A stretch of DNA of 64,000 bases. Origin: Flexivirga endophytica. Lineage in GTDB: Bacteria > Actinomycetota > Actinomycetes > Actinomycetales > Dermatophilaceae. Of the stretch, positions 1 through 64,000 are shown in pieces. How positions within the stretch are numbered: the stretch's first letter is position 1; each line of letters starts with the position of its first letter. A model generated the notes under the pieces. That model made no database searches, was not told the DNA's origin, and saw only the letters and a list, made by a program, of their open reading frames with translations. Location: positions 124,001-188,000 of the forward strand of contig NZ_BMHI01000007.1 in assembly GCF_014640635.1 (NCBI RefSeq), read 5' to 3'. The position numbers were made by a program, and so were the translations under genes.

Positions 1-261
1 TGGCACGCCGCCGGTGCGTCGTTCGTGGCCTTCACCGTGGGTGCGCTGATCCCGTTGATCGCCATACTCCTGCCGGCTCCGGGCCTTCGGGTGCCGATCT
101 GCTTCGTGGCCGTGGCGGTCGCCCTCGTGGTCACCGGTGCCGTGAGCGCGCGGCTGGGCGAGGCACCGACGCGACCGGCAGTGCTGCGCAACGTCCTCGG
201 CGGCATGCTCGCCATGGCCATCACGTATGGCGTGGGCACGCTCGTCGGCACGGCGGTCTGA
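1..261 (+). CDS. VIT1/CCC1-family metal transporter, C-terminal part
   Basis: The reading frame is open from the first base of the window and ends at 261, so only the last 86 residues are present. They form about three hydrophobic segments: one around GALIPLIAILL, a second after the PICF motif, and a third just before the C-terminus. The pattern of a GALIPL helix, a short polar linker with ARLG, and a final glycine-rich helix is that of VIT-type iron/manganese transporters, which move Fe2+ or Mn2+ across the membrane. The N-terminal half with the metal-binding helices lies outside the window, so substrate cannot be judged. The gene is convergent with the Lrp regulator that follows. Confidence 0.7.
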   Translation, partial: WHAAGASFVAFTVGALIPLIAILLPAPGLRVPICFVAVAVALVVTGAVSARLGEAPTRPAVLRNVLGGMLAMAITYGVGTLVGTAV

Positions 262-284
262 CCGGCCACCGGAGGGACCCTCGG

Positions 285-1298
285 CTAACTACCGCCACGA
301 TCCCGCTCGACCACTGCGCCGGCGCGCTTGAGGATGCGGCTGACCAGTGCCACCTGCACCTGCGCCACTCCCTCCAGACGGCCGACCTCCTCGGACACGA
401 AACGGTAGATGCTCTCGGTGTCCGGCGCGGCGACATTGGCGGTGATGCTGGTGGGGCCGCTGGTGGCCCCACAGAAGCGAACCGCCGGATGCGCACCGAC
501 GGCCTCGCCCACTGCGTGCAAGTGGGAGGGCGCAACCGTGAGGTGGAGCTGGGCGCTGAGTGCGAGACCGAACTGCCGTTCGTCGATGTCGACGTCGAAA
601 TAGAGCGCGCCCGCCTCACGCAGCTCAGTGACGCGACGACGCACCTGCGCCTCCGTCATGCCGTCACTCGCCGACCGCAGATCGGCGTACGTCGCCCTCC
701 CATCCACCATCAACGCCTGCACGAGCGGCTCGTCGGATGCGGTCAGCTCCACACTTCGGCCTGACGGGGCGGGAGTCCCACCGACGAGCCGCTGCTCCTC
801 CTCCGCGCTCAGGAAGTCCGGGCCGAGGCGCCAGTCCTTGGTGGTGGAACCGCGGTAGACGTGCAGCACGCTGGACGCCTCGATGCCGGTGATCTGCGCG
901 GTGCGCGGCAGCTGGCGCAGCAGCAACTGGTCCTGTTCGTCGATACTTCGTGGCCGCAGCACACAGTCCACCTGGGTGCCACCGCTCATCACTGCCACCC
1001 ACTGGACGTCGCGCCGGCCCGCAACGGCCCGACCGATGTTGAGCGCAGAATCCGGGCGGCAGGACAGGTGCAGCATCCAGTTCTGCCTCCCGAACGGCTC
1101 CGCGTCGACGAAGCCGATGACCCGCGCCGCTCCGGAGGACAGCAGCCTGCGGTAGCGGCGGGCGACCGTCTGTTCCGAAACCGCGAGCACCGATCCGATG
1201 ACGGCGAACGAAGCACGTGGCGCGACCTGGAGGCAATGGACGATTTTGACGTCGAGAGCGTCACGAGTGGCGTTTTCGTATGGAAGACGCATTGTCAT
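285..1298 (-). CDS. Lrp/AsnC-family transcriptional regulator, double-domain
   Basis: This 337-residue protein is about twice the usual Lrp length and contains two tandem Lrp units. The first winged helix-turn-helix lies at about residues 17-60 (LDVKIVHCLQVAPRASF) and the second at about 188-238. Each is followed by a RAM-type ligand-binding region. Fused double AsnC proteins are common in actinobacteria and usually control a neighbouring transporter or amino-acid gene. The gene diverges from the MFS exporter at 1438 across a gap of about 140 bases, so that exporter is the natural target. Two ATG codons lie six bases apart at the start (MTM), and either could be used. Confidence 0.85.
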   Translation of the reverse strand: MTMRLPYENATRDALDVKIVHCLQVAPRASFAVIGSVLAVSEQTVARRYRRLLSSGAARVIGFVDAEPFGRQNWMLHLSCRPDSALNIGRAVAGRRDVQWVAVMSGGTQVDCVLRPRSIDEQDQLLLRQLPRTAQITGIEASSVLHVYRGSTTKDWRLGPDFLSAEEEQRLVGGTPAPSGRSVELTASDEPLVQALMVDGRATYADLRSASDGMTEAQVRRRVTELREAGALYFDVDIDERQFGLALSAQLHLTVAPSHLHAVGEAVGAHPAVRFCGATSGPTSITANVAAPDTESIYRFVSEEVGRLEGVAQVQVALVSRILKRAGAVVERDRGGS

Positions 1299-1437
1299 AG
1301 TGGAAATCTACGCCAACACGCTCCTGGCTAACGCTTTCCTGCCGCCGACGATCAGAATTTTTGTCATCGGCCCGTGTCGATCTCCGGGCCGCTCGACCGT
1401 CATCTCGATGAACCACTCACTGAAGGAGCGACCGCTC

Positions 1438-2979
1438 ATGCGCAAATGGTTACCGCTGCTCACGATCTGCGTCGGCACGCTGATGTTGCTGGTCGACGTC
1501 ACGATCGTCAACGTCGCACTGCCCGACATGGCCGTCAATCTGCACACGAGCTTCAGCTCGCTGCAGTGGGTCGTCGACATCTACGCCCTCGTCCTCGCCG
1601 CGTTCCTGCTGGGCATCGGCTCCCTCGCCGACCGGTTGGGTCACCGCTCGACGTATGCCGTGGGCCTGGCGCTCTTCGCAATCGCTTCCGCCGTTTGCGG
1701 ATTCGCGGGCAACGACACCGTCTTGGTCGCCGCTCGTGGCGTGCAGGGCCTCGGCGGGGCGGCGATGTTCGCGACCACCTTCGCCCTGCTGAACAGCAGC
1801 TACGCCGGCAAGGACCGGGGCACGGCATACGGCATCTGGGGTGCGGTGTCCGGCGCGGCCGCGGGGATCGGACCGATCGCTGGTGGACTGCTGACCGAGC
1901 ACCTCTCCTGGCGGTGGATCTTCTTCGTCAACCTGCCGTTCGCGATCGCCGCGATCGTGCTCTGCTTCGTCGTGCTGGGGGCCGACAAGCGGCATCCGGC
2001 CCCGCTGGACCCGGCCGGCATCGTCACGTTCACCGCTTTCGCCGCTGCGCTCACCTACGGTCTGATCCGCGCGAACGAGGACGGCTGGGGCGATGCCGGG
2101 GTGCTGATCGCGTTCGCCGGCTCGGCATTGATGTTGGTCGCCTTCCTGTTCCTGGAGACGCGGAACGAGCACCCGATGCTCGACCTGAGGTTGCTGCGCA
2201 ACCGAGTCTTCGCTGGGTCGCTGCTCGCCGGATTCGTCCTGTCCGCAGCGGCGTTCGCCTACTTGACCTACGCCTCCATCTGGATGCAGTCGGTCCGTGA
2301 CATGTCGCCGGTCGAGGCCGGACTCGCCACCCTGCCCCTGGCCGTGGCGGCGTTCGTGACGAGCGCGACGCTCGGACGAGCGATGCATGGTGCCCGCAGC
2401 TGGATCGGCATCGGCCTCGGCATCGCCCTGACCGGTGTCGGTGGCTTGCTGGTCGCGCTGCAGCTCAGCAGTGCCGACGCGGACTGGACGGCCCTGATCG
2501 CCGGACTGACCGTCAGTGGAATCGGTGTCGGCCTGGCAGCGCCGACCCTGAGCTCCACCGCGATGTCCGTCGTTCCTGTCCGGCGCGGTGGTATGGCGGC
2601 GGGCGCCGTCAACACGGCTCGACAGCTCGGCTTCGCGCTCGGGATCGCAGCGCTGGGAACGCTTTACGCGGCGCGCATCTCGTCGGTGCTGGCCGCACAC
2701 ACCGTCCCGAATGCGTCGGCCGCGAGTGATGCCGTCGCCGGCGGACAGTCCCGCCTCCTGCTCGCCCAGGTCCCGGCCAGCGCCCGCGCGACGACCGAGC
2801 ATCTCATCCAGCTGTCATCGGTCGAGGGCCTGCGCCTCACCGCACTGGTCGCTGGTGTCCTCGGTGTCGTCGGCGGTCTGGTGGCGGGAGCGCTCATCCG
2901 GCCGGCCCGGCACGAGGCGGCCCCGGACGTGCCGGATGCGACTCCCCCCGTGGAGCGCGAGGTCGTCGGCATACATTGA
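1438..2979 (+). CDS. DHA2-family (EmrB/QacA-type) MFS drug exporter
   Basis: The 513-residue membrane protein has 14 predicted hydrophobic segments, the layout of the DHA2 proton-driven multidrug exporters. Motif A is visible after the second helix (GSLADRLGHR), and motif C appears as GPIAGG in the fifth. An acidic residue in helix 1 (LLVDVTIVNVALPDM) is also characteristic. I chose the ATG at 1438 because GGAG lies nine bases upstream; longer in-frame starts reach back into the divergent promoter region. The gene ends four bases before the peroxidase start, so the two are probably cotranscribed. The divergent double-Lrp gene is the likely regulator. The exported compound is unknown. Confidence 0.88.
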   Translation: MRKWLPLLTICVGTLMLLVDVTIVNVALPDMAVNLHTSFSSLQWVVDIYALVLAAFLLGIGSLADRLGHRSTYAVGLALFAIASAVCGFAGNDTVLVAARGVQGLGGAAMFATTFALLNSSYAGKDRGTAYGIWGAVSGAAAGIGPIAGGLLTEHLSWRWIFFVNLPFAIAAIVLCFVVLGADKRHPAPLDPAGIVTFTAFAAALTYGLIRANEDGWGDAGVLIAFAGSALMLVAFLFLETRNEHPMLDLRLLRNRVFAGSLLAGFVLSAAAFAYLTYASIWMQSVRDMSPVEAGLATLPLAVAAFVTSATLGRAMHGARSWIGIGLGIALTGVGGLLVALQLSSADADWTALIAGLTVSGIGVGLAAPTLSSTAMSVVPVRRGGMAAGAVNTARQLGFALGIAALGTLYAARISSVLAAHTVPNASAASDAVAGGQSRLLLAQVPASARATTEHLIQLSSVEGLRLTALVAGVLGVVGGLVAGALIRPARHEAAPDVPDATPPVEREVVGIH

Positions 2980-2983
2980 CACC

Positions 2984-3472
2984 ATGACGATTCTCGACGC
3001 GACCATCGCCCGACTCGACGGCACCGAAGGCACTCTCGCCGACATCACCCAGGGTCGGCCCGCCCTGCTGGTCAACGTGGCCAGCAAGTGCGGGCTGACC
3101 CCGCAGTACACGGCCCTGGAAGCGCTTCAGAAGGACTACGAGGCAAAGGGATTCACCGTCATCGGCCTCCCGTGCAACCAGTTCGCCGGGCAGGAGCCAG
3201 GCACCGCTGAGGAGATCCAGGAGTTCTGCAGCGCGACCTACGGCGTGACCTTCCCGATGACCGAGAAGATCGAAGTCAACGGCGACGGCCGGCACCCGAT
3301 CTACCAGGAACTCACCCGGGCCGCCGACCAGGAGGGCAAGGACGGCGACATCCAGTGGAACTTCGAGAAATTCGTGGTCGGCGCCGACGGCACCATCGTG
3401 CAGCGCTTCAGCCCGCAGGTCACGCCGGACGACCCGCAGGTCATCGCGGCGGTCGAGTCCACCCTGAGCTGA
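2984..3472 (+). CDS. Glutathione peroxidase family protein
   Basis: This 162-residue protein reduces hydrogen peroxide and organic hydroperoxides. Bacterial members mostly take electrons from thioredoxin rather than glutathione. The catalytic residues are visible: peroxidatic Cys36 in ASKCGLTPQY, the glutamine in the CNQFAGQEPGT loop, and the tryptophan and asparagine in IQWNFEKF. A cysteine takes the place of the selenocysteine found in animal enzymes. The length fits the family. The start ATG lies four bases after the MFS stop, and a hairpin terminator follows at 3510, closing a two-gene unit. Confidence 0.92.
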   Translation: MTILDATIARLDGTEGTLADITQGRPALLVNVASKCGLTPQYTALEALQKDYEAKGFTVIGLPCNQFAGQEPGTAEEIQEFCSATYGVTFPMTEKIEVNGDGRHPIYQELTRAADQEGKDGDIQWNFEKFVVGADGTIVQRFSPQVTPDDPQVIAAVESTLS

Positions 3473-3509
3473 TGCCGGAGGTCTCGCTGCGACCACTGGG
3501 CGAAACCGA

Positions 3510-3536
3510 CTGCCGAGGTTCACTCGGCAGTTCTTC
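3510..3536 (+). terminator. Rho-independent terminator after the peroxidase gene
   Basis: A perfect 8-bp inverted repeat (CTGCCGAG and CTCGGCAG) is separated by a 5-base loop and followed by TTCTTCT. It lies 38 bases past the peroxidase stop and before the SigK-type promoter of the next gene, so it insulates the two units. Confidence 0.65.
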
Positions 3537-3609
3537 TCGACGACCGACGCGCACCCGGACGGCTCACCGGTGACATTCCGGTTCTACCTGCGCGATATCT
3601 GACACGCAC

Positions 3610-3637
3610 CCATCCGGTATGGCGCTCGTGGCGAACC
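3610..3637 (+). promoter_or_regulatory. SigK-type promoter of the molybdenum oxidoreductase
   Basis: CCATCC and CGAACC are separated by 16 bases. The same pair recurs with the same spacing before the fasciclin gene (5220) and the FAD oxidoreductase operon (7300). It resembles the promoter described for mycobacterial SigK. The -10 element ends only six bases before the ATG at 3644, so the transcript is probably leaderless. Confidence 0.6.
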
Positions 3638-3643
3638 ACCTGC

Positions 3644-5200
3644 ATGAAAGATGCGCTTCTCTCCCGGGTCCGTGCTGCGACCGCCGGCTTGTTGTCGGTC
3701 GGAGCCGGACTGGCCGTCGGCCAGGTGGTCGCCGCGCTGCGCGATCCCGCCACATCGCCGGTGCTCGCCGTCGGGTCGGCGGTCATCGACCGCACGCCGA
3801 CTCCGTTGAAGGACTGGGCGATTCGACAGTTCGGGACCAACGACAAGCTGGTGCTGCTGTCGTCGGTCACGGTGGCCGTCCTGGTCGTCGCGATCGTCTC
3901 CGGCCTTGCGGCGCGTCACCGGGTCGGCGTCGGGGGCGCCATACAGGTCGCGATGTTGGCCGTCGCCGGCTGGGCGGTGCTCGACCGGCCCTTCGCCCGC
4001 TACCCGGACCTGATCCCGACGGTTGCCGCGGGGATCACATCCCTGCTGGTGCTGCTCGCCCTGCTCTGGCTGGACCACCAACCGACCGTGCGGCGGCTGG
4101 TCCGTCGCGGGCCGGTTGCCCTCGGCGCCTCGGGGGCCAGCCGACGTGATTTCGTTGTCGCCTCCGGTGTGACGGCCACTGCGGCGGTGGTGGGTTTCGG
4201 CGGAGCACGGCGCCTCACCAACTCACGGTCGGGCGTCGACGTGCAGATCCCGACAGCCGCCGAGCCGGCAGCGCCGCTCCCCCGCGGGCTCGATCGCTCC
4301 GTGCAAGGAGTGACGCCACTACGTACCCCGAACGCGAAGTTCTACCGGGTCGACACCGAGCTGACGGTGCCGACGCTCGATGCGTCCCGCTGGTCGCTCC
4401 AGATCGACGGTGATGTCGAAAACCCTTATGAGATCGACTATTCGGAACTGCTACGCCAGCCACTGGTCGAGCGGAACATCACCATCACGTGCGTGAGCAA
4501 CGAGGTGGGCGGCGGGTATGCCGGTGGCGCGACCTGGCGCGGCGTGCTGACCAAGGACCTGTTGTCACGGGCTCGCGTCGTGGAGCCCGATCGGCCCGAC
4601 CTCCAGGTCCTCAGCACCTCGTTCAACGGGTTCACCATCAGCACGCCATTGGGCGCGCTCACCGACGACCGCGGTGCGATGCTCGCCATCGCGATGAACG
4701 ACGCACCATTGCCACGCACCCACGGCTTCCCGGCACGCCTGATCACCCCGGGTCTCTACGGAATGCTCGGCTGCACCAAGTGGGTGACTCGGTTGACGGT
4801 CACGACATACGCCGACAAGAAGGCGTACTGGACCGAGCGCGGCTGGACCACGAAGGGCGAGATCAAACCGACCGCCCGCATCGACGTCCCACGGTCGTTC
4901 GCCTCCGTGCAGTCCGGCCGCGTCCTGATCGGCGGCACGGCCTGGGCCCAGCGCCGCGGCGTGGTACGGGTGCAGGTCAGCATCGACGACGGCCGATGGC
5001 ACGACGCGACGATGGGACCCGACGTCAACGTCGACTACTGGCGGCAGTGGTTCTACGCGTGGAACAGCACGGACAAGGGCACCCACAACGTCCGGGCCCG
5101 TGTCATCTACGGCGACCACGAGGTGCAGACGGCCAAGCGGGCCGGCGTCTTCCCCAGCGGCTCCAGTGGCATCGAGGAACGCAGCTTCGTCGTCCGCTGA
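3644..5200 (+). CDS. Membrane-anchored sulfite-oxidase-fold molybdopterin oxidoreductase
   Basis: The 518-residue protein has an N-terminal membrane part with about four hydrophobic segments (roughly residues 11-31, 70-90, 97-113 and 122-143). An internal twin-arginine-like motif SRRDF (166-170) with a short hydrophobic stretch follows, then a sulfite-oxidase-type molybdopterin domain from about residue 230. Cys283 in ITCVSNEVGG matches the cysteine that ligands molybdenum in this fold, and a C-terminal immunoglobulin-like Mo-co dimerisation region follows (GGTAWAQRRG onward). The catalytic domain is therefore expected outside the membrane. The substrate is unknown; MsrP-like repair or sulfite oxidation are possibilities. 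The SigK-type promoter directly upstream places it in the envelope-stress regulon. Confidence 0.82.
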   Translation: MKDALLSRVRAATAGLLSVGAGLAVGQVVAALRDPATSPVLAVGSAVIDRTPTPLKDWAIRQFGTNDKLVLLSSVTVAVLVVAIVSGLAARHRVGVGGAIQVAMLAVAGWAVLDRPFARYPDLIPTVAAGITSLLVLLALLWLDHQPTVRRLVRRGPVALGASGASRRDFVVASGVTATAAVVGFGGARRLTNSRSGVDVQIPTAAEPAAPLPRGLDRSVQGVTPLRTPNAKFYRVDTELTVPTLDASRWSLQIDGDVENPYEIDYSELLRQPLVERNITITCVSNEVGGGYAGGATWRGVLTKDLLSRARVVEPDRPDLQVLSTSFNGFTISTPLGALTDDRGAMLAIAMNDAPLPRTHGFPARLITPGLYGMLGCTKWVTRLTVTTYADKKAYWTERGWTTKGEIKPTARIDVPRSFASVQSGRVLIGGTAWAQRRGVVRVQVSIDDGRWHDATMGPDVNVDYWRQWFYAWNSTDKGTHNVRARVIYGDHEVQTAKRAGVFPSGSSGIEERSFVVR

Positions 5201-5219
5201 AAGTCGCAACGCGGACGAC

Positions 5220-5247
5220 CCATCCGATCTGCTGCCGGCACCGAATC
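5220..5247 (+). promoter_or_regulatory. SigK-type promoter of the fasciclin gene
   Basis: CCATCC, 16 bases, then CGAATC. This matches the elements at 3610 and 7300 in sequence and spacing. It would give a leader of about 40 bases carrying an AGGAG ribosome-binding site at 5279-5283. Confidence 0.6.
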
Positions 5248-5292
5248 ACCAGTGTTCTCAACCACAAACACCGCTCACAGGAGCTGACTCCC

Positions 5293-5958
5293 ATGAAGAC
5301 TCGTATCACCCTTTCGCTGGCCACCACGGCACTGCTGGCCGCCTCCTTGACCGCCTGCGGCTCGTCCGGCTCCAGTGGCTCCGGCGACAGCGGCGCTGCG
5401 AAGAGCCCGATGGCGAGCTCGTCCGCGATGAAGTCGTCGATGGCATCGAGCGACAGTGGCTCGAGCATGGGCGGCGCAGCCGACGCGGCGAAGCCCTTCG
5501 GCCCGGCGTGCTCGACCGTTCCCAAGAGCGGAAAGGGCTCGTTCAACGGTATGGCGCAGGACCCCGTCGCCACGGCCGCCTCCAACAACCCGGCCCTGTC
5601 CACGCTGGTGACGGCTGTCAAGAAGGCGGGCCTGGTCGACACACTGAACAGCGCGCCCGCACTCACTGTCTTCGCGCCCGCCAACTCGGCGTTCGCGAAG
5701 CTGCCGAAGTCCCAACTGAATGCGGTGCTGGCGGACAAGAAGCAGCTGACGACCCTGCTGACCGGACACGTCGTCAAGGGTCGGCTGAGCCCCAAGCAGC
5801 TGGCCGGCGACCACAAGTCGCTCGCCGGCACAACCATCAAGGTCGCCGGCTCCGGGGAGAAGTTCACGGTCGACGGCAACTCCAACGTCGTATGCGGCAA
5901 TGTGCAGACCGCGAACGCCACCGTGTACATCGTCGACACCGTCCTGATGGGCAAGTAA
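5293..5958 (+). CDS. Fasciclin-domain lipoprotein (MPT83/MPT70-like)
   Basis: The 221-residue protein begins with a lipoprotein signal peptide ending in the lipobox LTAC, with Cys22 as the lipid anchor. A low-complexity Ser/Gly/Met/Ala linker runs to about residue 70, and a single fasciclin (FAS1) domain follows, with the typical LTVFAPANSAF and GHVVKG motifs. FAS1 lipoproteins sit on the outer face of the membrane; mycobacterial MPT83 and MPT70 are the best-known relatives and are strongly SigK-dependent. The same dependence is expected here from the promoter at 5220 and the adjacent sigK-rskA pair. The ATG is nine bases after AGGAG. The binding partner is unknown. Confidence 0.9.
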   Translation: MKTRITLSLATTALLAASLTACGSSGSSGSGDSGAAKSPMASSSAMKSSMASSDSGSSMGGAADAAKPFGPACSTVPKSGKGSFNGMAQDPVATAASNNPALSTLVTAVKKAGLVDTLNSAPALTVFAPANSAFAKLPKSQLNAVLADKKQLTTLLTGHVVKGRLSPKQLAGDHKSLAGTTIKVAGSGEKFTVDGNSNVVCGNVQTANATVYIVDTVLMGK

Positions 5959-5982
5959 CCGCGTTCGTGCGGAGTCACGGCC

Positions 5983-7298: not shown

Positions 7299-7299
7299 C

Positions 7300-7327
7300 C
7301 CATCCGGCCACGTCGCGGCTCCGAACC
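7300..7327 (+). promoter_or_regulatory. SigK-type promoter of the FAD oxidoreductase/CFA operon
   Basis: CCATCC, 16 bases, then CGAACC, starting immediately after the rskA stop. It would drive the five-gene lipid operon separately from sigK-rskA. The leader is about 30 bases and includes an AAAGG ribosome-binding site at 7351-7355. Confidence 0.6.
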
Positions 7328-7362
7328 ACCACTGACAGACGTTCTCGTCGAAAGGTCATGTG

Positions 7363-9350: not shown

Positions 9351-9351
9351 C

Positions 9352-12762: not shown

Positions 12763-12769
12763 GCGCTGG

Positions 12770-53538: not shown

Positions 53539-53540
53539 AA

Positions 53541-54219: not shown

Positions 54220-54224
54220 CGCTC

Positions 54225-54342
54225 CCAGGTCACGAGAGGCAGCGTCAAGCCCTGGCTTGCTGTCCGGCAACCCTCCTCCGCGGTGGGGTGCTCCAGGTGA
54301 TGACCCGGCGGCACCGCCGGTGCCGCAAGCGCGAATCCCGGT
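54225..54342 (+). promoter_or_regulatory. SAM-IV riboswitch of the rightward sulfur operon
   Basis: The sequence has GGTCACGAGAGGCAGCG, TCAAGCCCTGGCTTGCTG, TCCGGCAACCCTCC, GGTGGGGTGCTCCAGGTGAT, GACC closing the first stem (GGTCA with TGACC), a GGCGGCACCGCC hairpin and the AAGCGCGA tail. This is the SAM-IV architecture. It precedes three luciferase-like monooxygenases and a flavin reductase. A CACCGG/CCGGTG hairpin just downstream may be part of the expression platform. Confidence 0.9.
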
Positions 54343-54408
54343 CTCCCCCACCGGATTTCCCGGTGCTGGCCTCTTCGCGACTCCGCATCTGAGACGAAGG
54401 TGATGCTG

Positions 54409-55590: not shown

Positions 55591-55606
55591 AAGGACGAAC
55601 TCGATC

Positions 55607-56990: not shown

Positions 56991-58096
56991 CCGGCGTTCC
57001 ACTGTCCGTCCTGGACCTGGTGCACGTGTCGTCGGGATCGAATCCGCGGGACGCGCTGCGCAACAGCGTGGACCTGGCGCGGCAGGCTGAGGAATTCGGT
57101 TACGCCCGTTACTGGTTCGCCGAACATCACCTGAACCCCGGCGTTGCAGGGGTGTCGCCCGCATTGACGATCGGCCTCGCCGCTGCGGCGACGAACGGCA
57201 TCCGCGTCGGTGCCGCGGCAGTGCAGATGGGTCACCGCTCCGCACTGACGACGATCGAGGAGTTCGGGCTGTTGGATGCGGCACACCCGGGACGTATCGA
57301 TCTGGGGCTGGGCCGATCGGGTGGGCGCCCACCGGTCACGCCTACACCGCGACGTTCGCAGACCGAGGTGTTGCCCGGTGGCCTGGTCGTGCCTCCTCCG
57401 TTCTCTTTCGAGCGTCTCGCAGCTTCGCCCCGCTTCGCCCTCCAACGGGACCTGCTGACCGGGCCCGACCACAAGCCGCAGCCGTATGGCGAGCAGGTGG
57501 CCGACCTGCTGGCCCTGCGCGACGGCACCTACCGCCACCCGAACGGCGAGGCCGCCACCGTCGCAGGAGAGGGGGCTCCGCTACAGGTCTGGGTCCATGG
57601 CAGCAGCGCCGGCGAGAGCGCACAGCTCGCGGGCCGTCATGGACTGCGTTTCGGCGCGAATTACCACGTGGCGCCGGCGAGCGTCATCGAGGCCGTTGCG
57701 GCATACCGGTCGCACTTCCGGCCCAGCGCTGAGCTGGAAAGCCCGCACGTCATCGTCTCCGCAGATGTCGTCGTCGCCGAAACAGCCGATGCGGCAAAGG
57801 AACTCGCGACCGGATATGCACCGTGGGTGCGCAGCATCCGGACGGGCGCGGGCGCCATACCGTTCCCGACCCCGGAAGAGGCACGAGCCCTGCCGCGGTC
57901 GGACGACGATCTCGCCCTGGTCGCCGATCGCCTCGCCACGCAGTTCGTCGGTACGCCAGGACAGGTCGCGGACCAGCTGCAGGTGCTGCAGGAAACGACC
58001 GGCGCCGACGAACTACTGGTCACCACGATCACCCACGACCACGACGACCGTGTCCGATCCTTCCAACTGCTCGCAAAGGAGTGGCAGCAGCGATGA
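56987..58096 (+). CDS. MsnO8-type luciferase-like monooxygenase
   Basis: The 369-residue protein carries the MsnO8 subfamily pattern: LSVLDLVHVSSGSNPRDALRN, YARYWFAEHHLNPGVAGVSP and HPGRIDLGLGRSGG. MsnO8-family enzymes are flavin monooxygenases linked to methanesulfonate-type and other sulfonate or sulfide metabolism. The GTG start overlaps the upstream stop by four bases (GTGA), and the stop overlaps the flavin reductase start. Thus all three products are probably made together from one mRNA. Confidence 0.88.
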   Translation: MTGVPLSVLDLVHVSSGSNPRDALRNSVDLARQAEEFGYARYWFAEHHLNPGVAGVSPALTIGLAAAATNGIRVGAAAVQMGHRSALTTIEEFGLLDAAHPGRIDLGLGRSGGRPPVTPTPRRSQTEVLPGGLVVPPPFSFERLAASPRFALQRDLLTGPDHKPQPYGEQVADLLALRDGTYRHPNGEAATVAGEGAPLQVWVHGSSAGESAQLAGRHGLRFGANYHVAPASVIEAVAAYRSHFRPSAELESPHVIVSADVVVAETADAAKELATGYAPWVRSIRTGAGAIPFPTPEEARALPRSDDDLALVADRLATQFVGTPGQVADQLQVLQETTGADELLVTTITHDHDDRVRSFQLLAKEWQQR

Positions 58097-58582
58097 GCGT
58101 CATCACGAATCCCTCCATCGACACCGGTCATCTGCGCCGGGTCTTCGGGGCGCACTCGACGGGCGTGACCGCGCTCGCCGCCGTGGTCGACGGCCATCCG
58201 CAAGAATGGTCGCCAGCCTTCACGTCGGGCTCCCTGCAGCCCGCACTCGTCTCGGTGTGCGTTGCACACACCTCCACGACCTGGCCCGCGTTGCGTGCCG
58301 CGTCGCACCTGGGCGTCAGCGTGCTGTCCGTGGCACAGCAACACGCCGGGCGCGTGCCCAGCGCGCGGCGTCGACCGGTTCGCCGACGTCGACTGGCGTG
58401 CGACCACCCGCCGAGCAGTGTTCCTGGACGGTGCGACCGCGTTGCTGGAAACGACCGTCCGGGATGTCGTCACGGCCGGCGATCACGACATCGTCGTGCT
58501 GGGCGTCCATGACCTCGACCTGGACGAATCCCGGCCGCCGTTGGTGTTCCACGGCAGTGCATTCCGTCGTTTGGCGTCATGA
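58093..58582 (+). pseudogene. FMN reductase of the sulfur operon interrupted by a +1 frameshift
   Basis: The ATG at 58093 overlaps the previous stop (ATGA). The N-terminal part (LRRVFGAHSTGVTALAAVVDG, then SLQPALVSVCVAHTSTTWPAL) is flavin-reductase-like. Near 58361-58368, in GCGCGCGG, the frame shifts; the other frame continues VDRFADVDWRATTRRAVFLDG and DHDIVVLGVHDLDLDESRPP to the normal C-terminus at 58582. A corrected protein would be 162 residues. It would provide reduced FMN to the four monooxygenases. The same uncertainty applies as for the interrupted monooxygenase upstream. Confidence 0.78.
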
Positions 58583-58614
58583 TCCGTGCCGGTTCGTCCC
58601 GACGCCGGCTGCGC

Positions 58615-59214
58615 TCAGCGCACGAGCGAAACCGCCACGCGCTGCCAGCCGGCAACCACGTGCTCCAGGGTGACGTTGCGCGTCGAGAGGAGGTGATCGG
58701 TGACGTCGGGTTCCAGTGGTGCGAGCAGCATTTCGGCAAGGACGTCCACATTGTCGCGAACACCGCACTGCCGCAACAGCATTCGCACATGCGTTGCGGA
58801 CAACTGACGCGCAGGGACGTCGAACCTGCCGCTCCCGTCCTGGGACCCGGCCTTCAACAGCGGTCCGTGCACGGCGTAGAGACGCAGGCGCCCCTCGCCA
58901 TACGCCAGCAGCCTTTGCAGTGGCGGCGCATCAGGCCCGAGCGGTGGCGGGCCCGAGAGGAACTCCTGCTGGAAGGTCCGCTCGGCCTCGTCCGTCAGCG
59001 CCGCGAACAGGCCCGACCGGTTGCCGAAGGCCCGGAAGATCGTGCCCTTGCCGACTCCGGCCCGCGCCGCAAGATGGTCCATGGTCAGCGACTCGATGCC
59101 CTCACAGCGGATGACATCGCGCGCCGCAGCCAGGATGCGGTCGGAGTTGGCCGCTGCATCGCGGCGGACCCGTGGCGGCGCGGCCGCCATGGGTAGCTGT
59201 CGCGGTGTGGTCAT
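58615..59214 (-). CDS. TetR-family transcriptional regulator
   Basis: The 199-residue protein has a TetR DNA-binding domain at about residues 20-65 (ILAAARDVIRCEGIESLTMDH, then RAGVGKGTIFRAFGNR) and a C-terminal ligand domain. It is divergent from the FMN reductase at 59325, and a perfect palindrome lies in the gap. An inducer linked to the reductase (a quinone, nitroaromatic or similar) is likely. An in-frame GTG at 59220 is an alternative to the ATG at 59214. Confidence 0.88.
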   Translation of the reverse strand: MTTPRQLPMAAAPPRVRRDAAANSDRILAAARDVIRCEGIESLTMDHLAARAGVGKGTIFRAFGNRSGLFAALTDEAERTFQQEFLSGPPPLGPDAPPLQRLLAYGEGRLRLYAVHGPLLKAGSQDGSGRFDVPARQLSATHVRMLLRQCGVRDNVDVLAEMLLAPLEPDVTDHLLSTRNVTLEHVVAGWQRVAVSLVR

Positions 59215-59262
59215 GACCACATTCTCCCATCCGGACGACCTCGGGGTTGCACACCGGAAGAA

Positions 59263-59282
59263 AAACGGACTATGGTCCGTTT
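59263..59282. promoter_or_regulatory. TetR operator
   Basis: AAACGGAC-TATG-GTCCGTTT is a perfect 8-bp inverted repeat. It lies between the divergent TetR and FMN reductase genes and overlaps the expected promoter of the reductase. Confidence 0.7.
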
Positions 59283-59324
59283 AGCTCCTCGGAATGTCCC
59301 CCACCGCTTTGAAAGGTACCTCCC

Positions 59325-59873
59325 ATGACCACCAAGCTCGCAGTGCTAGTCGGCAGCCCCCGGTCCGCCTCCATCCATCGCCGGCTCGCCGACGTCGCTG
59401 CCGGTCTCGCGCCGGAGGGCACCGAGGTCGAGATCGTCGACTACCTCGACACCCTTCCCTTCTACAACGAGGACCAGGACATCGAGCCGGCACCGGAAGC
59501 CGTTCAGCGCCTCCGCACCCAGCTCGGTGAAGCCGACGCAGCGCTCCTGCTGTCACCTGCCAACAACGGCACACTCTCCGCGGTGCTCAAGAACGCCATC
59601 GACTGGGCGTCCCGCCCCTACGGCCAGTCGTCGCTGAGCGGCAAGCCGGTCGCCGTGTCCTCGGCCGCACACAACACCTCGACCGTGGTCGAACACACCC
59701 ACCTCGCCGTCACCATCGCCGGCGGCCTGCCCCTGGCCGATGCGAGTGCGACGTTCGCACTGGCTGAGCTCGACGGCGTCGACCTCAGCACGCACCAGCC
59801 GGTCGGCACGGCCCTGCAGGCCACCGTCGACGCGCTGGTGCACGCAGCAGCCGCCGCCACCGCGGCCGCCTGA
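59325..59873 (+). CDS. NADPH-dependent FMN reductase family protein
   Basis: The 182-residue flavodoxin-fold protein starts KLAVLVGSPRSASIHRRLAD, with the phosphate-binding loop, and contains LLLSPANNGTLSAVLKNAIDWASRP, which binds the flavin ring, and GKPVAVSSAAHNTS. The family includes quinone and azo reductases. Expression is presumably controlled by the divergent TetR regulator. It ends before a strong hairpin terminator shared with glmM. Confidence 0.9.
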   Translation: MTTKLAVLVGSPRSASIHRRLADVAAGLAPEGTEVEIVDYLDTLPFYNEDQDIEPAPEAVQRLRTQLGEADAALLLSPANNGTLSAVLKNAIDWASRPYGQSSLSGKPVAVSSAAHNTSTVVEHTHLAVTIAGGLPLADASATFALAELDGVDLSTHQPVGTALQATVDALVHAAAAATAAA

Positions 59874-59902
59874 GCCGAAGCACTTTCTTCGTCATACGAC
59901 GA

Positions 59903-59938
59903 AAGGGGTGTGCGGAGCGATCGCTCCGCACACCCCTT
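59903..59938. terminator. Bidirectional terminator between FMN reductase and glmM
   Basis: A perfect 18-bp inverted repeat without a loop (AAGGGGTGTGCGGAGCGA and its complement) lies between the convergent genes. A bidirectional role is likely because both genes point at it. Confidence 0.75.
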
Positions 59939-59955
59939 CGGTGTCTGTAGGCCGA

Positions 59956-61311
59956 TCAGGCGGGCGCCAACGCCAGCTCACTGGCGACGACCGCGGCCAA
60001 CTGCTGGGCGATCTGCTGGGCACGCTCGGGCGACGCGGCCTCGACCATCACACGCACGACCGGCTCGGTGCCGGACTTGCGCAACAGCACCCGACCCAGG
60101 CCGGCCAGGTCGCGCTGCGCCTGGGCGACGGCGGACTGCACCACCGGATGTCCGTCGACCGCGTGCTTGTCGACACCAGGGACGTTGACCAGGCACTGCG
60201 GCAGGCGCGTCATACAGGCGGCGAGGTCGGCGAGCGTGGTGCCGGTCGCAGCGACGCGCGCGGCGAGCATCAGCCCGGTGAGCACGCCGTCGCCCGTGGT
60301 GCCGTGCTCGAGCATGATGACGTGGCCGGACTGCTCGCCGCCGAGCGAGAACCCGCCGCGGCGCATCTCCGCCAGCACGTAGCGGTCGCCGACGTCGGTG
60401 CGCATCACGGTGATGCCCGCGCCGGTCATCGCCTGCATCAGGCCCTCGTTGCTCATCACGGTCGCGACCAGCGTGTCACCGGCGAGCGCGTGCCGTTCGT
60501 GCAGGTCGAGCGCCAGGATCGCCATGATCTGGTCACCGTCAACCTCGGCGCCGGTCGCGTCGACGGCCAGGCAGCGGTCGGCGTCCCCGTCGAAGGCGAG
60601 GCCGAGATCGGCGCCGACCTCCGGCACCATCCGGCGCAGGTGCTCCAGGTGGGTCGAGCCCACCCCGTCGTTGATGTTGAGGCCGTCCGGTGCGGCGCCG
60701 ACGAGCGTGACCTGGGCGCCGGCGCGCTCGAACGCCTTGGGCGCGATCTCACTCGCCGCACCATGCGCGGTGTCGAGCACCACGTGCAGCCCGTCCAGGC
60801 GATGCGGTATGGCGCCCAGCAGGTGGGCGACATACTGCTCGGCGCCCTCGGGGAACGGCTTGACCCGGCCGACCTGATCGCCGACCGGTCGCTCCCAGTC
60901 ACCACGCAGCCGCGCCTCGATGGCGTCCTCGGTCGCGTCCGGCAGCTTGTGCCCGCCGTGCGAGAAGAACTTGATGCCGTTGTCGGGCATCGGGTTGTGC
61001 GACGCGGACAACATCGCGCCGATATCGGCACCCGCTGCAGCCGTCAGGAAGGCAATCGCGGGAGTCGGCAGGACCCCGGCGTCGAAGACGTCGACGCCGG
61101 CCGATGCCAGGCCGGCGATGGTCGCCGCGGCCAGGAACTCACCCGACGCGCGCGGGTCGCGCCCGACGACGGCAGTGGGCCGGTGTCCGGCCAACTCGCC
61201 CTCCTCGGCCAATACCCGCACGGCTGCGACCGACAGGTCGAGCGCGAGCTCGGCCGTGATGTCCCGATTGGCCAAGCCGCGCACACCGTCGGTGCCGAAC
61301 AAGCGCCCCAT
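59956..61311 (-). CDS. glmM: Phosphoglucosamine mutase GlmM
   Basis: The 451-residue enzyme converts glucosamine 6-phosphate to glucosamine 1-phosphate for peptidoglycan precursor synthesis. The phosphoserine site is Ser104 in [16 protein letters not shown], the metal loop is [11 protein letters not shown], and the phosphate-binding end is [15 protein letters not shown]. It lies downstream of rplM-rpsI as in most actinobacteria, but about 600 bases of repeats separate the two, so it likely has its own promoter. Confidence 0.97.
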
Positions 61312-61396
61312 GGATCACCTCAAACTCTCGAAGATTCCGGTGCATCACGCGCCACCGGCGGCCGCAGAACAGCCCTCAGCAGGGTAAGCGACGGCG

Positions 61397-61423
61397 GGTC
61401 CCGTCGGTAAATCCGACGGGACC
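61397..61423. repeat. Hairpin upstream of glmM
   Basis: GGTCCCGTCGG and CCGACGGGACC form a perfect 11-bp inverted repeat with a TAAAT loop, 85 bases before the glmM start. It lies in the likely 5' leader of glmM and shares GTCC/CGG words with the tandem repeat beyond it. Confidence 0.6.
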
Positions 61424-61500
61424 GAAGTGCGCCCCGTCACATCGTGTATGACGTATGACACGCCCCGAAGGTTGTATGGCGTATGTCGATCCCGTTCCAA

Positions 61501-61680
61501 CGGACCGACCGTCGGCACTTCGGCACTCTTCCCGCGCCGGACACCGTCCCGACGGACCGACCGTCGGCACTTCGGCACTCTTCCCGCGCCGGACACCGTC
61601 CCGACGGACCGACCGTCCGCACTTCGGCACTCTTCCCGCGCCGGACGCCGTCCCAACGGACCGACCGTCGGCACTTCGGG
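61501..61680. repeat. 52-bp tandem repeat between glmM and rpsI
   Basis: Units begin at 61501, 61553, 61605 and 61657 (about 3.5 copies). Each contains GGACCGACCGTCGGCACTTC and the CTCTTCCCGCGCCGGA segment. A period of 52 is not a multiple of three, so the open frames through it are chance. The copies differ by only a few bases. Confidence 0.8.
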
Positions 61681-61736
61681 ACGTAAGGCGACAGCACAGG
61701 CCGACGCAACTGAAGGACCAGCCGACCTGCCATCCG

Positions 61737-61829
61737 GATGACGACCGACGCGTTGCGAGGAATGATGACGACCGACGTGTCGCGAGGAATGATGACGACC
61801 CACGCGTTGCGAGGAATGTTGCGAGGAAT
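61737..61829. repeat. 27-bp tandem repeat between glmM and rpsI
   Basis: Units of GATGACGACC-xACGxGTxGCGAGGAAT begin at 61737, 61764 and 61791, followed by a partial GTTGCGAGGAAT. It lies 57 bases past the end of the 52-bp repeat and ends 30 bases before the rpsI terminator. Confidence 0.75.
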
Positions 61830-61859
61830 ACGGATCAACGCCTACATCTGCACGACGGC

Positions 61860-61913
61860 AAGCACATGCAAGGGCCCCGGCGAACTGGTTCGCCGGGGCC
61901 CTTGCATGTGCTT
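61860..61913 (-). terminator. Terminator of the rplM-rpsI operon
   Basis: Two 26-base arms form a perfect inverted repeat with a 2-base loop, immediately after the rpsI stop on the minus strand. The stem includes AGGGCCCCGG and its complement. The length and perfection are unusual for a simple terminator. Confidence 0.8.
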
Positions 61914-61925
61914 CGAGGCGTCAGA

Positions 61926-62432
61926 TCAGCGCTTGCTGTACTGCGGAGCCTTACGGGCCTTCTTGAGACCGGCCTTCTTGCGCTCCGGGACGCGAGCGTC
62001 ACGGGACAGGAAGCCTGCCTTCTTCAGGGTCGGGCGGTTCAGCTCCTCGTCGACGCCGTTCAGCGAACGGGCGACACCGAGGCGGACGGCACCGGCCTGG
62101 CCGGAGGGGCCACCGCCGTGCACGCGCACGAGGACGTCATACGCACCATCGAGCTCGAGAACCTTCAGCGGCTCGTTGACGATCTGCTGGTGCACCTTGT
62201 TGGGGAAGTAGGCCTCGAGGGTGCGGCCGTTGATCTTCCACTCACCCGTGCCGGGCACGATGCGCACGCGGGCGATGGCCTGCTTGCGACGGCCGGTGGC
62301 GGCGCCAGGCGCGGAGGCGCTGGGGCGAGCCTTGGGCTCGTCACCGGCGACGTCCGTGGACGACTCCGAGGTGTAGTTGGTCAGCTGGGGCTCGTCGTCC
62401 TCCAGGACGTCGACCTGAGTCTGGTCGGTCAT
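61926..62432 (-). CDS. rpsI: 30S ribosomal protein S9
   Basis: The 168-residue protein has the S9 core [21 protein letters not shown] and [23 protein letters not shown], and the very basic C-terminus ending KAPQYSKR, which reaches the P-site tRNA. An N-terminal acidic extension of about 35 residues is typical of actinobacteria. It follows rplM by 33 bases and is the last gene of the operon. Confidence 0.97.
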
Positions 62433-62465
62433 CTTGTCAATTCTCCTTGGAAGTCCGGCGGGCGC

Positions 62466-62915
62466 TTACTGCGCGACCTGGGTGATCTCGAACGGCTTGG
62501 GCTGCTGCGCGGCGTGCGGGTGCTCCGGGCCGGCGTAAACCTTCAGCTTGGCCAGCTGCTGGCGTCCGAGGGAGTTGTGCGGAATCATGCCGGTGATGGC
62601 CTTCTCGACCGCCTTGGCCGGGTTCTTGGCCATCAGCTCGGTGTAGGAGGTGGTCTTCAGTCCGCCCGGGAAACCGGAGTGGGTGTAGGCCTTCTTCTTC
62701 TGGAGCTTGGCGCCGGTGAGGGCGACCTTGTCGGCGTTGATGATGATGACGAAGTCACCGGTGTCGGCGTTCGGCGCGAAGGTCGGCTTGTGCTTCCCGC
62801 GCAGCAGGATCGCGGCCTGGGAGGCCAGGCGGCCGAGAACGACGTCGGAGGCGTCAATGACGTGCCACACGCGGTCCTGCTGGACCTGCGCCGGCTTGGG
62901 CGTGAAGGTACGCAC
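62466..62915 (-). CDS. rplM: 50S ribosomal protein L13
   Basis: The 149-residue protein has the L13 motifs [38 protein letters not shown] and [20 protein letters not shown]. It binds 23S rRNA early in assembly. It heads the rplM-rpsI operon, whose promoter is predicted at 63006-63034, leaving a leader of about 85 bases. Confidence 0.97.
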
Positions 62916-63005
62916 GAGTCTGCCTTTTCTTGTTGATCGTGGACTCGGAGCGACCGGTGGTCGCCCTGTGTGTCAGTGGTTGCGCACGAAGCACAACAGT
63001 CGTCA

Positions 63006-63034
63006 ATTCTACGGGCCGCCGACATACCGCCCAA
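63006..63034 (-). promoter_or_regulatory. Sigma-70-type promoter of rplM-rpsI
   Basis: On the minus strand TTGGGC and TAGAAT are separated by 17 bases. It is the only good match in the 215-base gap before rplM. Confidence 0.6.
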
Positions 63035-63109
63035 ATCGACCGGATCCGCCGTGCCACCAACGGTTTTCGGCTGTATGACGCCTGGCGGCCGATGGTTTAC
63101 ACCTTAAGT

Positions 63110-63128
63110 ATGCACAACTATTGTGCAT
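63110..63128. promoter_or_regulatory. ArsR-type operator at the regulator start
   Basis: ATGCACAA-CTA-TTGTGCAT is a perfect 8-bp inverted repeat that ends two bases before the ATG at 63131. Binding of the regulator here would block its own transcription. Confidence 0.65.
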
Positions 63129-63130
63129 GT

Positions 63131-63691
63131 ATGTCGCCGTCCCGATCCACCGGATCCGATCAACTGCGCGCCCTCGCACACCCGCTGCGGTCCCGGCTGC
63201 TGGCACAACTGCGGGTGCACGGTGGCGCCACCGCGACCGAACTCGCCGTGGCGCTCGGCACGCACACCGGCGCCACCAGCTACCACCTGCGCCGCCTGGC
63301 GGAGGCGGGACTGATCGAGGACACCGGCACCGGCACCGGCCGGCGCCGGGTATGGGCGGCCGCCGAGCCCGCCGGCCGCGCAGAGCCCGAGCCGATGGAC
63401 GAGGACGACCTCGCGGCCGAGCAGTGGTTGCAGCGCGACTACGTCGAGCACTTCGCCGAGCGCGCCGGCGCCTGGATCGACGACAGCGCGAGCTGGCCGG
63501 ACACCTGGCAGGAACATTGCGGGCTCGCCGACCATGCCGTGCTCGTGACCACCGAGCAACTGACGGCTCTCGCGGCGGAGATGGCCGAAGTCATGGAGCG
63601 TTACCGCCGGGCCGGCGCGGGCTCCCCCGGGGCGCGGCGCGTGGCGGCATACACCGCGTTGTTGCCGGTGGATCCGCCACCGGCCGGCTGA
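63131..63691 (+). CDS. ArsR-type winged-helix regulator
   Basis: The 186-residue protein has an ArsR-like helix-turn-helix (LRALAHPLRSRLLAQLRVHGG, then GTHTGATSYHLRRLAEAGLIE) and a long helical C-terminal region with no metal-binding cysteines. It resembles regulators related to YdfF/ArsR-like drug responders. A palindrome at 63110 provides the probable autoregulatory operator, and it may control the downstream carboxymuconolactone-like gene. Translation may begin without a leader, because no ribosome-binding site is visible. Confidence 0.83.
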   Translation: MSPSRSTGSDQLRALAHPLRSRLLAQLRVHGGATATELAVALGTHTGATSYHLRRLAEAGLIEDTGTGTGRRRVWAAAEPAGRAEPEPMDEDDLAAEQWLQRDYVEHFAERAGAWIDDSASWPDTWQEHCGLADHAVLVTTEQLTALAAEMAEVMERYRRAGAGSPGARRVAAYTALLPVDPPPAG

Positions 63692-63755
63692 CGCTGTCAC
63701 AGATCGGGCGCGGGCGGTGTCTGGTGGGCAACAGACCCGACGAAAGGCGGCTGAC

Positions 63756-64000
63756 ATGCCCACCACCAGTTCGTTCCGCATCCCCAAGGCACCCATCACC
63801 GGCCTGTACGGCGCCGCGATGCGCGCCTACGCCCGCCGCAAGTGGGGCGAGATCCCCGACAACGGCTACGTCTACTTCCACAACAAGCCGGTCATGCGTG
63901 CGGTGCTCGGCATCGAGCAGAAGGTGCAGCGCTGGAAGAAGCTGGACCCGAGCCTGCACAGCTACGCGACGATGGCGGCTGCCGGCGTCATCGGCTGCAG
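63756..64000 (+). CDS. Carboxymuconolactone-decarboxylase-family protein, N-terminal part
   Basis: The 82 residues present begin MPTTSSFRIPKAPITGLYGAAMR and continue YVYFHNKPVMRAVLGIEQKV and WKKLDPSLHSYATMAAAGVIGC. This is the alkylhydroperoxidase D-like (carboxymuconolactone decarboxylase) family, whose CxxC motif usually follows a GC dipeptide like the one at the window end. It may function in peroxide defence or in lactone metabolism. GAAAGG is nine bases before the ATG. The gene runs past the window. Confidence 0.7.
   Translation, partial: MPTTSSFRIPKAPITGLYGAAMRAYARRKWGEIPDNGYVYFHNKPVMRAVLGIEQKVQRWKKLDPSLHSYATMAAAGVIGC

What the first reader, a model, noticed from the sequence alone, without database searches (positions are those of the whole stretch)
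1..64000. Octamer GTATGNCG (reverse CGNCATAC) is scattered far above expectation on both strands
Although TA steps are rare in this GC-rich DNA, GTATG/CATAC recurs. In the first 13 kb I counted by hand 25 occurrences; 21 extend to the full octamer GTATGNCG (10 in one orientation, 11 in the other), where base composition alone (about 68% GC assumed) predicts one or two. The octamer also occurs in intergenic DNA (for example near 61448, 61470, 63007 and 63073). In coding regions it appears in several frames and forces rare ATA isoleucine codons (for example near 3941 and 6045). A DNA-level signal is implied: an uptake sequence, a methylation or restriction site, or a site for a nucleoid or segregation protein.
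Basis: partly seen in the sequence, partly recalled or inferred. Interest (0 to 1): 0.8.

Follow-up and report, generated by a model that had tools for sequence, protein, structure and literature searches.

The report
Two-dialect genome watermark in soil actinobacteria
These soil bacteria carry thousands of copies of one short DNA word, spelled with T in some species and with C in others at one letter, and neighbouring copies tend to point in opposite directions, which suggests a tag that lets the cell recognise its own DNA, read by a machine that travels along it.

Summary
GTATGNCG occurs 110 times in the window (4.6 expected) and 8,019 times in the 4.72-Mb genome, equally on both strands, in all six reading frames and between genes; 139 of 190 ATA codons in the sampled genes lie inside it. 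The nearest named relatives are Dermatophilaceae (Actinobacteria). Three things go beyond the finding. (1) There is a second spelling, GTACGNCG: of 186 family genomes 105 are T-type, 10 C-type, 1 both, 70 neither. One genus holds both types, and at aligned sites the base flips while some sites stay. (2) Kribbella and several other actinobacterial families are rich in the C spelling. (3) Neighbouring T sites alternate orientation (419 opposite, 253 same; none of ten control words does), so the word seems to be read directionally. Four low-density stretches examined carry mobile or defence genes. Codon usage, replication polarity and RecBCD-Chi do not explain it. Best reading: a directional self-DNA signal in DNA import and recombination, working like Neisseria uptake sequences. 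Uptake is not shown: type IVa pili are mostly absent, and no import gene tested tracks the word well. A Chi-like signal for another nuclease is the main rival. My searches found no report of it.

The parts
225..63136 (+). 52 forward sites GTATGNCG (8 bases each), starting at 225, 1653, 2591, 3617, 4516, 5549, 6108, 8010, 8984, 11489, 14600, 16212, 16223, 16275, 16833, 20425, 21138, 21156, 21452, 22424, 22884, 24736, 26042, 27082, 27509, 28774, 31488, 34277, 34642, 35772, 36171, 38431, 38821, 39583, 41199, 42101, 43496, 45072, 45177, 46023, 50193, 51043, 52805, 52870, 56330, 57484, 60807, 61446, 61474, 61481, 63073, 63129
60..63652 (-). 58 reverse sites (CGNCATAC on the + strand), starting at 60, 1823, 2967, 3937, 4803, 6039, 6356, 6507, 8629, 11102, 12411, 13420, 14713, 16350, 16974, 16986, 18047, 19149, 21220, 21862, 22803, 23315, 24492, 24685, 25156, 25735, 26315, 28248, 30072, 31181, 31247, 31995, 32295, 33328, 34488, 35247, 36741, 38409, 39299, 42698, 42810, 45353, 47278, 50028, 50366, 52389, 53731, 56198, 56471, 57699, 57853, 58896, 59890, 60208, 60828, 62135, 63020, 63645
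61446..61488 (+). cluster of three tandem copies between called genes (61446, 61474, 61481)
63020..63080 (.). diverging pair (reverse 63020, forward 63073) between called genes
3937..3944 (-). copy inside the called gene 3644-5200 (+) that forces a rare ATA isoleucine codon

Best explanation
GTAYGNCG is a genome-wide self-recognition word of some Actinobacteria that works like a DNA uptake sequence but is read directionally. During natural transformation a DNA-reading step of import or of strand integration prefers DNA that carries the word and acts on the DNA to one side of it. Conspecific DNA is therefore favoured, and alleles holding the word replace those without it; over time this drive builds thousands of copies wherever proteins tolerate them. 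Because a copy serves one direction only, a second copy in the same direction nearby adds little while one in the opposite direction is still useful, so copies alternate. SHOWN by computation: sharp extreme enrichment, DNA-level nature, absence of strand polarity, alternation of T sites, scarcity in islands, patchy presence, two nearly exclusive dialects, switching at orthologous sites.
For: Enrichment: 688 against 16.2 expected in 364 kb, and the 21 one-mismatch neighbours together not in excess (783 against 737); same top word in blind scans of G000, G047 and G121. DNA level: six frames, intergenic 1.99/kb against 1.82/kb coding; codon shuffle 591 against 70 +- 8. No polarity: 4048 to 3971, no stretch-wise bias. 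Alternation: G000 419 opposite to 253 same, permuted null 341 +- 13; also in the window alone (72 of 105), G047 (184 of 275), G121 (276 of 484), ten pooled named loci (63 of 94) and congeners (85 of 130), while ten control words give 42-52%. Dialects: 105 T, 10 C, 1 both, 70 neither of 186 genomes; Spearman T against C -0.58; C form below its codon-shuffle null in T genomes (34 against 97 in G121, 92 against 137 in G000); base flips within one genus (7 of 58 aligned sites, controls 5 of 231; unchanged 0 of 58, controls 57 of 231). Four low-density stretches carry mobile or defence genes. comEA and comEC adjacent in 30 of 30 loci looked at, ComEC in 180 of 186 genomes. Natural transformation with ComEA/ComEC and Tad pili is known in the actinobacterium Micrococcus luteus (PMC4322843, passages).
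Against: No import gene tested follows the word: ComEC is near-universal also in genomes without it, and five of the six genomes lacking a ComEC match are T-type drafts; a PilT over the cut-off is found in 2 of 186; Flp pilin in 66 of 116 word-bearing and 25 of 70 word-less genomes, and absent from all four congeners. Directional reading is not known to me as a property of the Neisseria signal and would suit a Chi-like signal at least as well. The C-dialect alternation is weak once palindromic overlaps are removed (reached by 28, 57, 192 and 87 of 1000 permutations in four sets) and a Micromonospora control set shows a similar value (30 of 1000). Extra site conservation is seen among congeners of the window (56 of 118 against 9.6 expected) but not in eight pairs of other genera (19 of 44 against 223 of 574 for control words). 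No uptake, binding or transformation was measured.
Confidence: 0.43

Rival explanations
1. Chi-like site: a DNA-end-processing nuclease/helicase other than RecBCD (AdnAB or AddAB type) is switched at the word when it meets it in one orientation, protecting self DNA and starting recombination. Its recognition base differs between lineages.
For: Alternating orientation fits a machine that enters from either end and needs a properly oriented site each way. Over-representation and scarcity in islands also fit.
Against: No replication-strand bias, which Chi of E. coli has (recalled). RecC is if anything rarer with the word (48 of 116 against 41 of 70), and the four T-type g38 genomes lack it while word-less G046 has it. 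AdnAB and AddAB were not searched.
Confidence: 0.28
2. Modified or HIP1-like site: a methyltransferase or other DNA-modifying enzyme acts on the word and some use of the mark selects for many copies; the enzyme's specificity shifts between T and C.
For: High density, free N and single-base specificity would suit a modification enzyme; the C-to-T change lies in a CpG step. GTATGNTG is depleted in G000 (1 against 9.6) and G047 (0 against 3.5).
Against: The depletion is absent in G121 (19 against 15.9). Restriction normally selects against sites. No methylome data could be consulted. Alternation of orientation is not expected.
Confidence: 0.12
3. Chromosome-structuring site: an abundant nucleoid or segregation protein binds the word about every 0.6 kb, and selection for coverage maintains it; its specificity changes between lineages.
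For: Roughly uniform density over the sampled chromosome stretches; scarcity in islands.
Against: No polarity, which disfavours KOPS-like signals. Complete absence from close relatives such as G046 and G131 is odd for a structural need.
Confidence: 0.08
4. By-product of codon or codon-pair usage (or of composition) without any DNA-level role.
For: One frame (G TAT GNC G) is favoured: 220 of 591 coding sites. Part of the C-form background in other high-GC genomes may be of this kind (Streptomyces 58 against 37 +- 5, Micromonospora 79 against 43 +- 6).
Against: All frames and intergenic DNA are enriched; codon shuffling leaves 591 against 70; T and C exclude each other between congeners; orientation alternates even inside single genes (230 opposite, 110 same).
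Confidence: 0.02

Closest known systems
DNA uptake sequence (DUS) dialects of Neisseriaceae
   Same: Short non-palindromic word in thousands of copies; dialects in related species that share a core; patchy in the family (passages of PMC3630211: eight dialects, shared CTG, up to 5918 copies in 2.4 Mb).
   Different: Other phylum; no type IVa pilus in most genomes; neighbouring copies alternate orientation; uptake preference not shown. The ComP receptor of that system is named in the passages; a counterpart was not found or sought by sequence here.
Uptake signal sequence (USS) of Pasteurellaceae
   Same: About 1300 copies of AAGTGCGGT in H. influenzae (passage of PMC5217627); self-DNA tag (abstract of PMC7811141 in a listing).
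   Different: Different word and phylum; USS pairs often form terminators (same passage); no clear excess of short facing pairs here.
Chi sites of RecBCD/AddAB (recalled)
   Same: Over-represented 5- to 8-base word acting in one orientation.
   Different: No replication-strand bias here; no link to RecC.
Tad/Flp-pilus natural transformation of Micrococcus luteus
   Same: An actinobacterial uptake machine with ComEA/ComEC (passages of PMC4322843); G000 has comEA-comEC, TadA-like ATPases and one Flp pilin match.
   Different: The main text of that paper has no occurrence of 'uptake sequence'; Flp pilin does not follow the word well here.
HIP1 of cyanobacteria (recalled)
   Same: Very abundant octamer of disputed function.
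   Different: HIP1 (GCGATCGC) is a palindrome; this word is not, and it alternates and has dialects.

Membership tests
DNA uptake sequence (DUS/USS) | Short non-palindromic word far above expectation genome-wide | tested here: met
DNA uptake sequence (DUS/USS) | Both strands equally, independent of replication direction | tested here: met
   4048 to 3971; 16 stretches of G000 and 39 readable stretches of two other genomes without a one-sided bias
DNA uptake sequence (DUS/USS) | Dialects in relatives that share a core | tested here: met
DNA uptake sequence (DUS/USS) | Scarce in recently acquired DNA | tested here: met
   four low-density stretches examined, each with mobile or defence genes; a fifth, L203, was not annotated
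DNA uptake sequence (DUS/USS) | Type IV (competence) pilus machinery of the Gram-negative kind | tested here: not met
   PilT over cut-off in 2 of 186 genomes, not in G000; so it is not filed as a member
DNA uptake sequence (DUS/USS) | DNA with the word is taken up preferentially | not testable with these tools
   needs an uptake or transformation assay
Chi site | Acts in one orientation | tested here: inconclusive
   alternation of neighbouring T sites suggests directional reading but does not show action
Chi site | Skewed to one replication strand (recalled for E. coli) | tested here: not met
Chi site | Goes with its reader RecBCD (RecC) | tested here: not met
   RecC in 48 of 116 word-bearing and 41 of 70 word-less genomes; AdnAB/AddAB not tested
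KOPS/SRS-type segregation signal | Polar orientation from origin to terminus (recalled) | tested here: not met
HIP1 | Palindromic GCGATCGC (recalled) | tested here: not met
   the word is not palindromic (sequence)
Methylation motif | A base in the word is modified in vivo | not testable with these tools
   no methylome data

The most novel reading that the evidence does not exclude
Actinobacteria have their own self-DNA language, GTAYGNCG, independent of Neisseriaceae and Pasteurellaceae. It marks entry points that are read in one direction by a non-type-IVa import or end-processing machine, spans several families, and splits by a single-base change of its reader into T and C dialects that could act as a sexual barrier even between species of one genus.
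Probability: 0.4. Interest if true: 0.94.

Novelty: new variant of a known kind. Interest (0 to 1): 0.88.

Why it matters
In the papers my searches showed, uptake sequences are described for Neisseriaceae and Pasteurellaceae only. A comparable signal in soil Actinobacteria would be an independent case. Even if the function is not uptake, an 8,000-copy word with a one-base switch and alternating orientation points to an unidentified DNA-reading protein of wide distribution.

Tried and rejected
Codon or composition artefact: rejected for the T form. RecBCD-Chi: RecC does not track the word. Type IVa pilus: PilT over cut-off in 2 of 186, split pieces in a third (G009). Flp pilin as determinant: weak association only (odds ratio 2.4, not corrected for kinship). 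The com operon as determinant: intact in both states in the 30 best-scoring ComEC loci. Vsr-type correction: GTATGNTG is depleted in G000 and G047 but not in G121. Terminator-like pairs: within 50 bp 16 facing, 12 diverging, 19 tandem. Dialect scan of 74 of 80 named loci (six under 10 kb left out): besides Kribbella no equally clear word that I could separate from codon-pair words. One-stretch scan of 53 of 60 further genomes (seven contigs under 4 kb left out). The first gene caller was poor and was replaced. Four small contigs of G000 (C10-C13: an island, a partly masked one and two masked ones) were left out of the 364-kb counts; with them the count is 691 in 391 kb. Literature: eight searches, of which I saw the listings. 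Spellings with N or Y gave one unrelated seaweed paper; plain 8-mers gave 2,134 papers, of which 20 were listed and looked unrelated. Passages only were read of PMC3630211, PMC4322843 and PMC5217627. Subscription papers and preprints are not in that library. While re-checking for this report I found the alternation of orientation; because of it I lowered the plain uptake reading from about even odds and raised the Chi-like rival.
Full report
WHAT IS THERE. GTATGNCG occurs 110 times in the window, 52 forward and 58 reverse, against 4.59 +- 2.05 in 100 dinucleotide shuffles. 110 of 125 GTATG extend to the octamer. The whole genome (G000, 4.72 Mb, 13 contigs) holds 4048 + 3971; the backwards control gives 642 + 607. 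In 364 kb from nine contigs of G000, the window included, there are 688 against 16.2 expected from a third-order Markov model trained with the word masked. The 21 one-mismatch neighbours together are not in excess (783 against 737), so seven positions are read sharply; position 6 is free. Flanks show codon periodicity and a mild preference for A or C at +8.

DNA LEVEL, NOT PROTEIN LEVEL. By my own gene caller (no standard annotation was available) the word is as dense between genes (79 sites, 1.99/kb) as inside them (1.82/kb) and occurs in all six frames: 17, 64, 220 on the coding strand and 11, 140, 139 on the other. In G047, another genus, it is denser between genes (1.69 against 0.59/kb); in G121 it is about equal (1.14 against 1.26). 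Shuffling synonymous codons within genes gives 70 +- 8 against 591 observed, and this null is inflated because 139 of 190 ATA and 220 of 503 TAT codons of the sampled G000 genes lie inside the word.

DIRECTION. Overall the two orientations are equal, and no sampled stretch of G000, G047 or G121 is one-sided in the way a replication-polar signal would be. Locally, however, neighbouring sites alternate: in G000 419 neighbours are opposite and 253 the same, against 341 +- 13 opposite when orientations are permuted within stretches, and same-orientation gaps are more even than permuted (CV 0.87 against 1.00). This holds in the window alone (72 of 105), in G000 without it (347 of 561), in G047 (184 of 275), G121 (276 of 484), ten pooled named T loci (63 of 94) and congeners (85 of 130); ten control words in G000 give 42-52%. 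It fades beyond about 1 kb and is present inside single genes (230 opposite, 110 same). Evenness in G121 alone is not significant (81 of 500). For the C word, whose GTAC core lets two copies overlap head to head, the effect is weak after such overlaps are removed (144 of 253 in Kribbella, 84 of 149 in f37, 19 of 31 in G106, 51 of 88 in three other families; reached by 28, 57, 192 and 87 of 1000 permutations), and Micromonospora, meant as a control, shows a similar value (52 of 84, 30 of 1000) while Streptomyces does not (30 of 60).

WHO HAS IT. The closest named relatives by IspH are Dermatophilaceae: Segeticoccus, Janibacter, Arsenicicoccus, Pedococcus, Phycicoccus, Terrabacter. Whole-genome T counts of named records: Segeticoccus 2596, Arsenicicoccus bolidensis 3210, Pedococcus bigeumensis 2696, Terrabacter Root181 2312, Serinicoccus kebangsaanensis 1900; but Janibacter corallicola 74, Marihabitans 90, Mobilicoccus 97, Phycicoccus avicenniae 52 (19 of 20 loci given were held). 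Fourteen genomes from 14 other families of the order have at most 0.09 per kb. Within the family the pattern is patchy (186 genomes).

THE SECOND DIALECT. A blind scan of 74 named loci gave GTACGNCG as the top word in four of five Kribbella loci and second in the fifth. The five pooled hold 326 in 104 kb against 31 expected, again with a free N, in all six frames, 309 against 76 +- 7 by codon shuffle. Class-wide counts in 393 genomes and one stretch each from 53 of 60 further genomes show it high in several families and at background in others. The codon shuffle supports f17 (38 against 9), f20 (23 against 6), f28 (41 against 11) and pooled f37 g106/g149 (200 against 70), but not f37 g96 (7 against 7); f25, Streptomyces and Micromonospora are only about two-fold above it, which may be codon-pair effects.

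MUTUAL EXCLUSION AND SWITCHING. I then counted the C form in the same 186 family genomes. By thresholds chosen after seeing the counts, 105 are T-type, 10 C-type, 1 both, 70 neither; T and C densities correlate negatively (Spearman -0.58, not corrected for kinship, from hand-copied forward-strand counts). G161 (by equal counts the Phycicoccus Soil748 record), with moderate excess of both, fell just below the thresholds. T genomes G121 and G000 carry the C form below its codon-shuffle null (34 against 97; 92 against 137). Genus g55 contains a C genome (G106: T 68, C 8164), a T genome (G107: T 3862, C 698) and an intermediate (G108: T 1230, C 1579). A 20-kb stretch of G106 has 42 C and no T. Of its 30 and 28 C sites aligned with G107 and G108, none is C there and 3 and 4 are T; of the 10 and 7 aligned T sites of the relatives, 3 and 4 are C in G106. 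Eight control words kept their letters in 57 of 231 comparisons and made the same transition in 5. The two comparisons share the G106 sites and are not independent. Most sites are thus gained or lost, and a minority persist and flip the base. In mixed L036, C sites correspond in relatives to T, to C, but mostly to other near words such as CTACGNCG.

CONSERVATION. Against four congeners at 80-82% identity, 56 of 118 aligned comparisons of window sites keep all seven letters, where gene- and codon-position-matched identity predicts 9.6; twelve control words keep 120 of 411 against 87 predicted. One of these controls, GCNGTATG, contains GTATG and does better (7 of 20 against 1.8); the four comparisons share sites. 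In eight pairs of other genera the word is kept in 19 of 44 and control words in 223 of 574, so extra conservation is not seen there.

ISLANDS. Low-density stretches carry mobile or defence genes: a 19-kb contig of G000 with 3 copies (integrase-core transposase, MTaX1, weak STAND-like ATPase), L186 of G047 with 3 (Mutator transposase, metal P-type ATPase), L206 of G121 with 1 (Wadjet JetD, OLD-like, SNF2), and L123 with none between 354 and 9771, next to a phage integrase. A fifth stretch of intermediate density (L203, 8 copies) was not annotated.

MECHANISM. Over-representation without replication polarity, scarcity in newcomers, and lineage dialects sharing a core resemble DNA uptake sequences (PMC3630211, passages). 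Genes for import are present: ComEC in 180 of 186 genomes (five of the six misses are T-type drafts), comEA beside comEC in the 30 best-scoring loci, 18 T, 1 C, 1 mixed and 10 without the word, TadA-like ATPase matches in 183 of 186 but a PilT over the cut-off in 2. In Micrococcus luteus, also an actinobacterium, transformation needs the tad clusters together with ComEC (PMC4322843, passages). But no import gene tested follows the word: Flp pilin is in 66 of 116 word-bearing and 25 of 70 word-less genomes and in none of the four congeners. The alternation says that one copy serves one direction. That suits an entry point from which DNA on one side is imported, a check made on one imported strand, or an end-processing enzyme that needs a properly oriented site from either side. 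The reader protein is unknown.

NOVELTY. Eight literature searches showed no report of GTATGNCG or GTACGNCG as a genomic signal, nor of an uptake sequence in Actinobacteria, among the listings I saw; a paper on spaced motifs in prokaryotic genomes (PMC5217627, passages) does not mention the genera asked for. I call it a new variant of a known kind: it works like an uptake sequence, but a defining feature of the known systems (type IV pilus machinery) was tested and not met, so it is not filed as a member.

Noticed in passing
window about 39909-40010 and 47877-47986: A dispersed, palindromic repeat of about 100 bp with dozens of partial matches elsewhere in G000 on both strands. No copy of the octamer starts inside these two stretches.
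   Followed up: no
window about 34393-34445 and 46342-46396: A repeat of about 52 bp, 86-93% alike, with many copies in G000 and its congeners, sometimes as close tandem pairs.
   Followed up: no
window 53414-53533 (-) and 54228-54337 (+): Two SAM-IV riboswitches pointing away from each other, about 0.7 kb apart.
   Followed up: no
window 25784-25851 (+): A guanidine-III riboswitch.
   Followed up: no
sampled genes of G000: 139 of 190 ATA isoleucine codons and 220 of 503 TAT tyrosine codons lie inside the word, so the signal shapes the usage of rare codons.
   Followed up: yes
G000 and G047 samples (window, L111-L125, L179-L198): The neighbour GTATGNTG is nearly absent (1 against 9.6; 0 against 3.5 expected) although other one-mismatch neighbours are not; in G121 it is not depleted (19 against 15.9). 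Unexplained.
   Followed up: partly
L199-L218 (G121): Relaxed forms GTATGNGG (57 against 15) and GTATGNCC (60 against 20) are also enriched, and N is mostly C (352 of 506).
   Followed up: no
L049-L051, L053, L054 (Kribbella): Relaxed forms GTACTNCG (60 against 14.7) and GTACGNCT (35 against 8.0) are also enriched.
   Followed up: no
L067 (Hamadaea tsunoensis): Another GTAC-centred word, CGCGTAC / GNGTACGC, is the top word of this locus (65 against 12; 51 against 9).
   Followed up: no
G046 against G043-G045 and G047 (genus g38): G046 lacks both dialects and has RecC, while its four congeners have the T word and lack RecC.
   Followed up: partly
L055 and L057: Metagenome records titled Spirochaetaceae and Bifidobacterium breve encode IspH 76% and 73% identical to this actinobacterial one; the titles may be wrong.
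   Followed up: no
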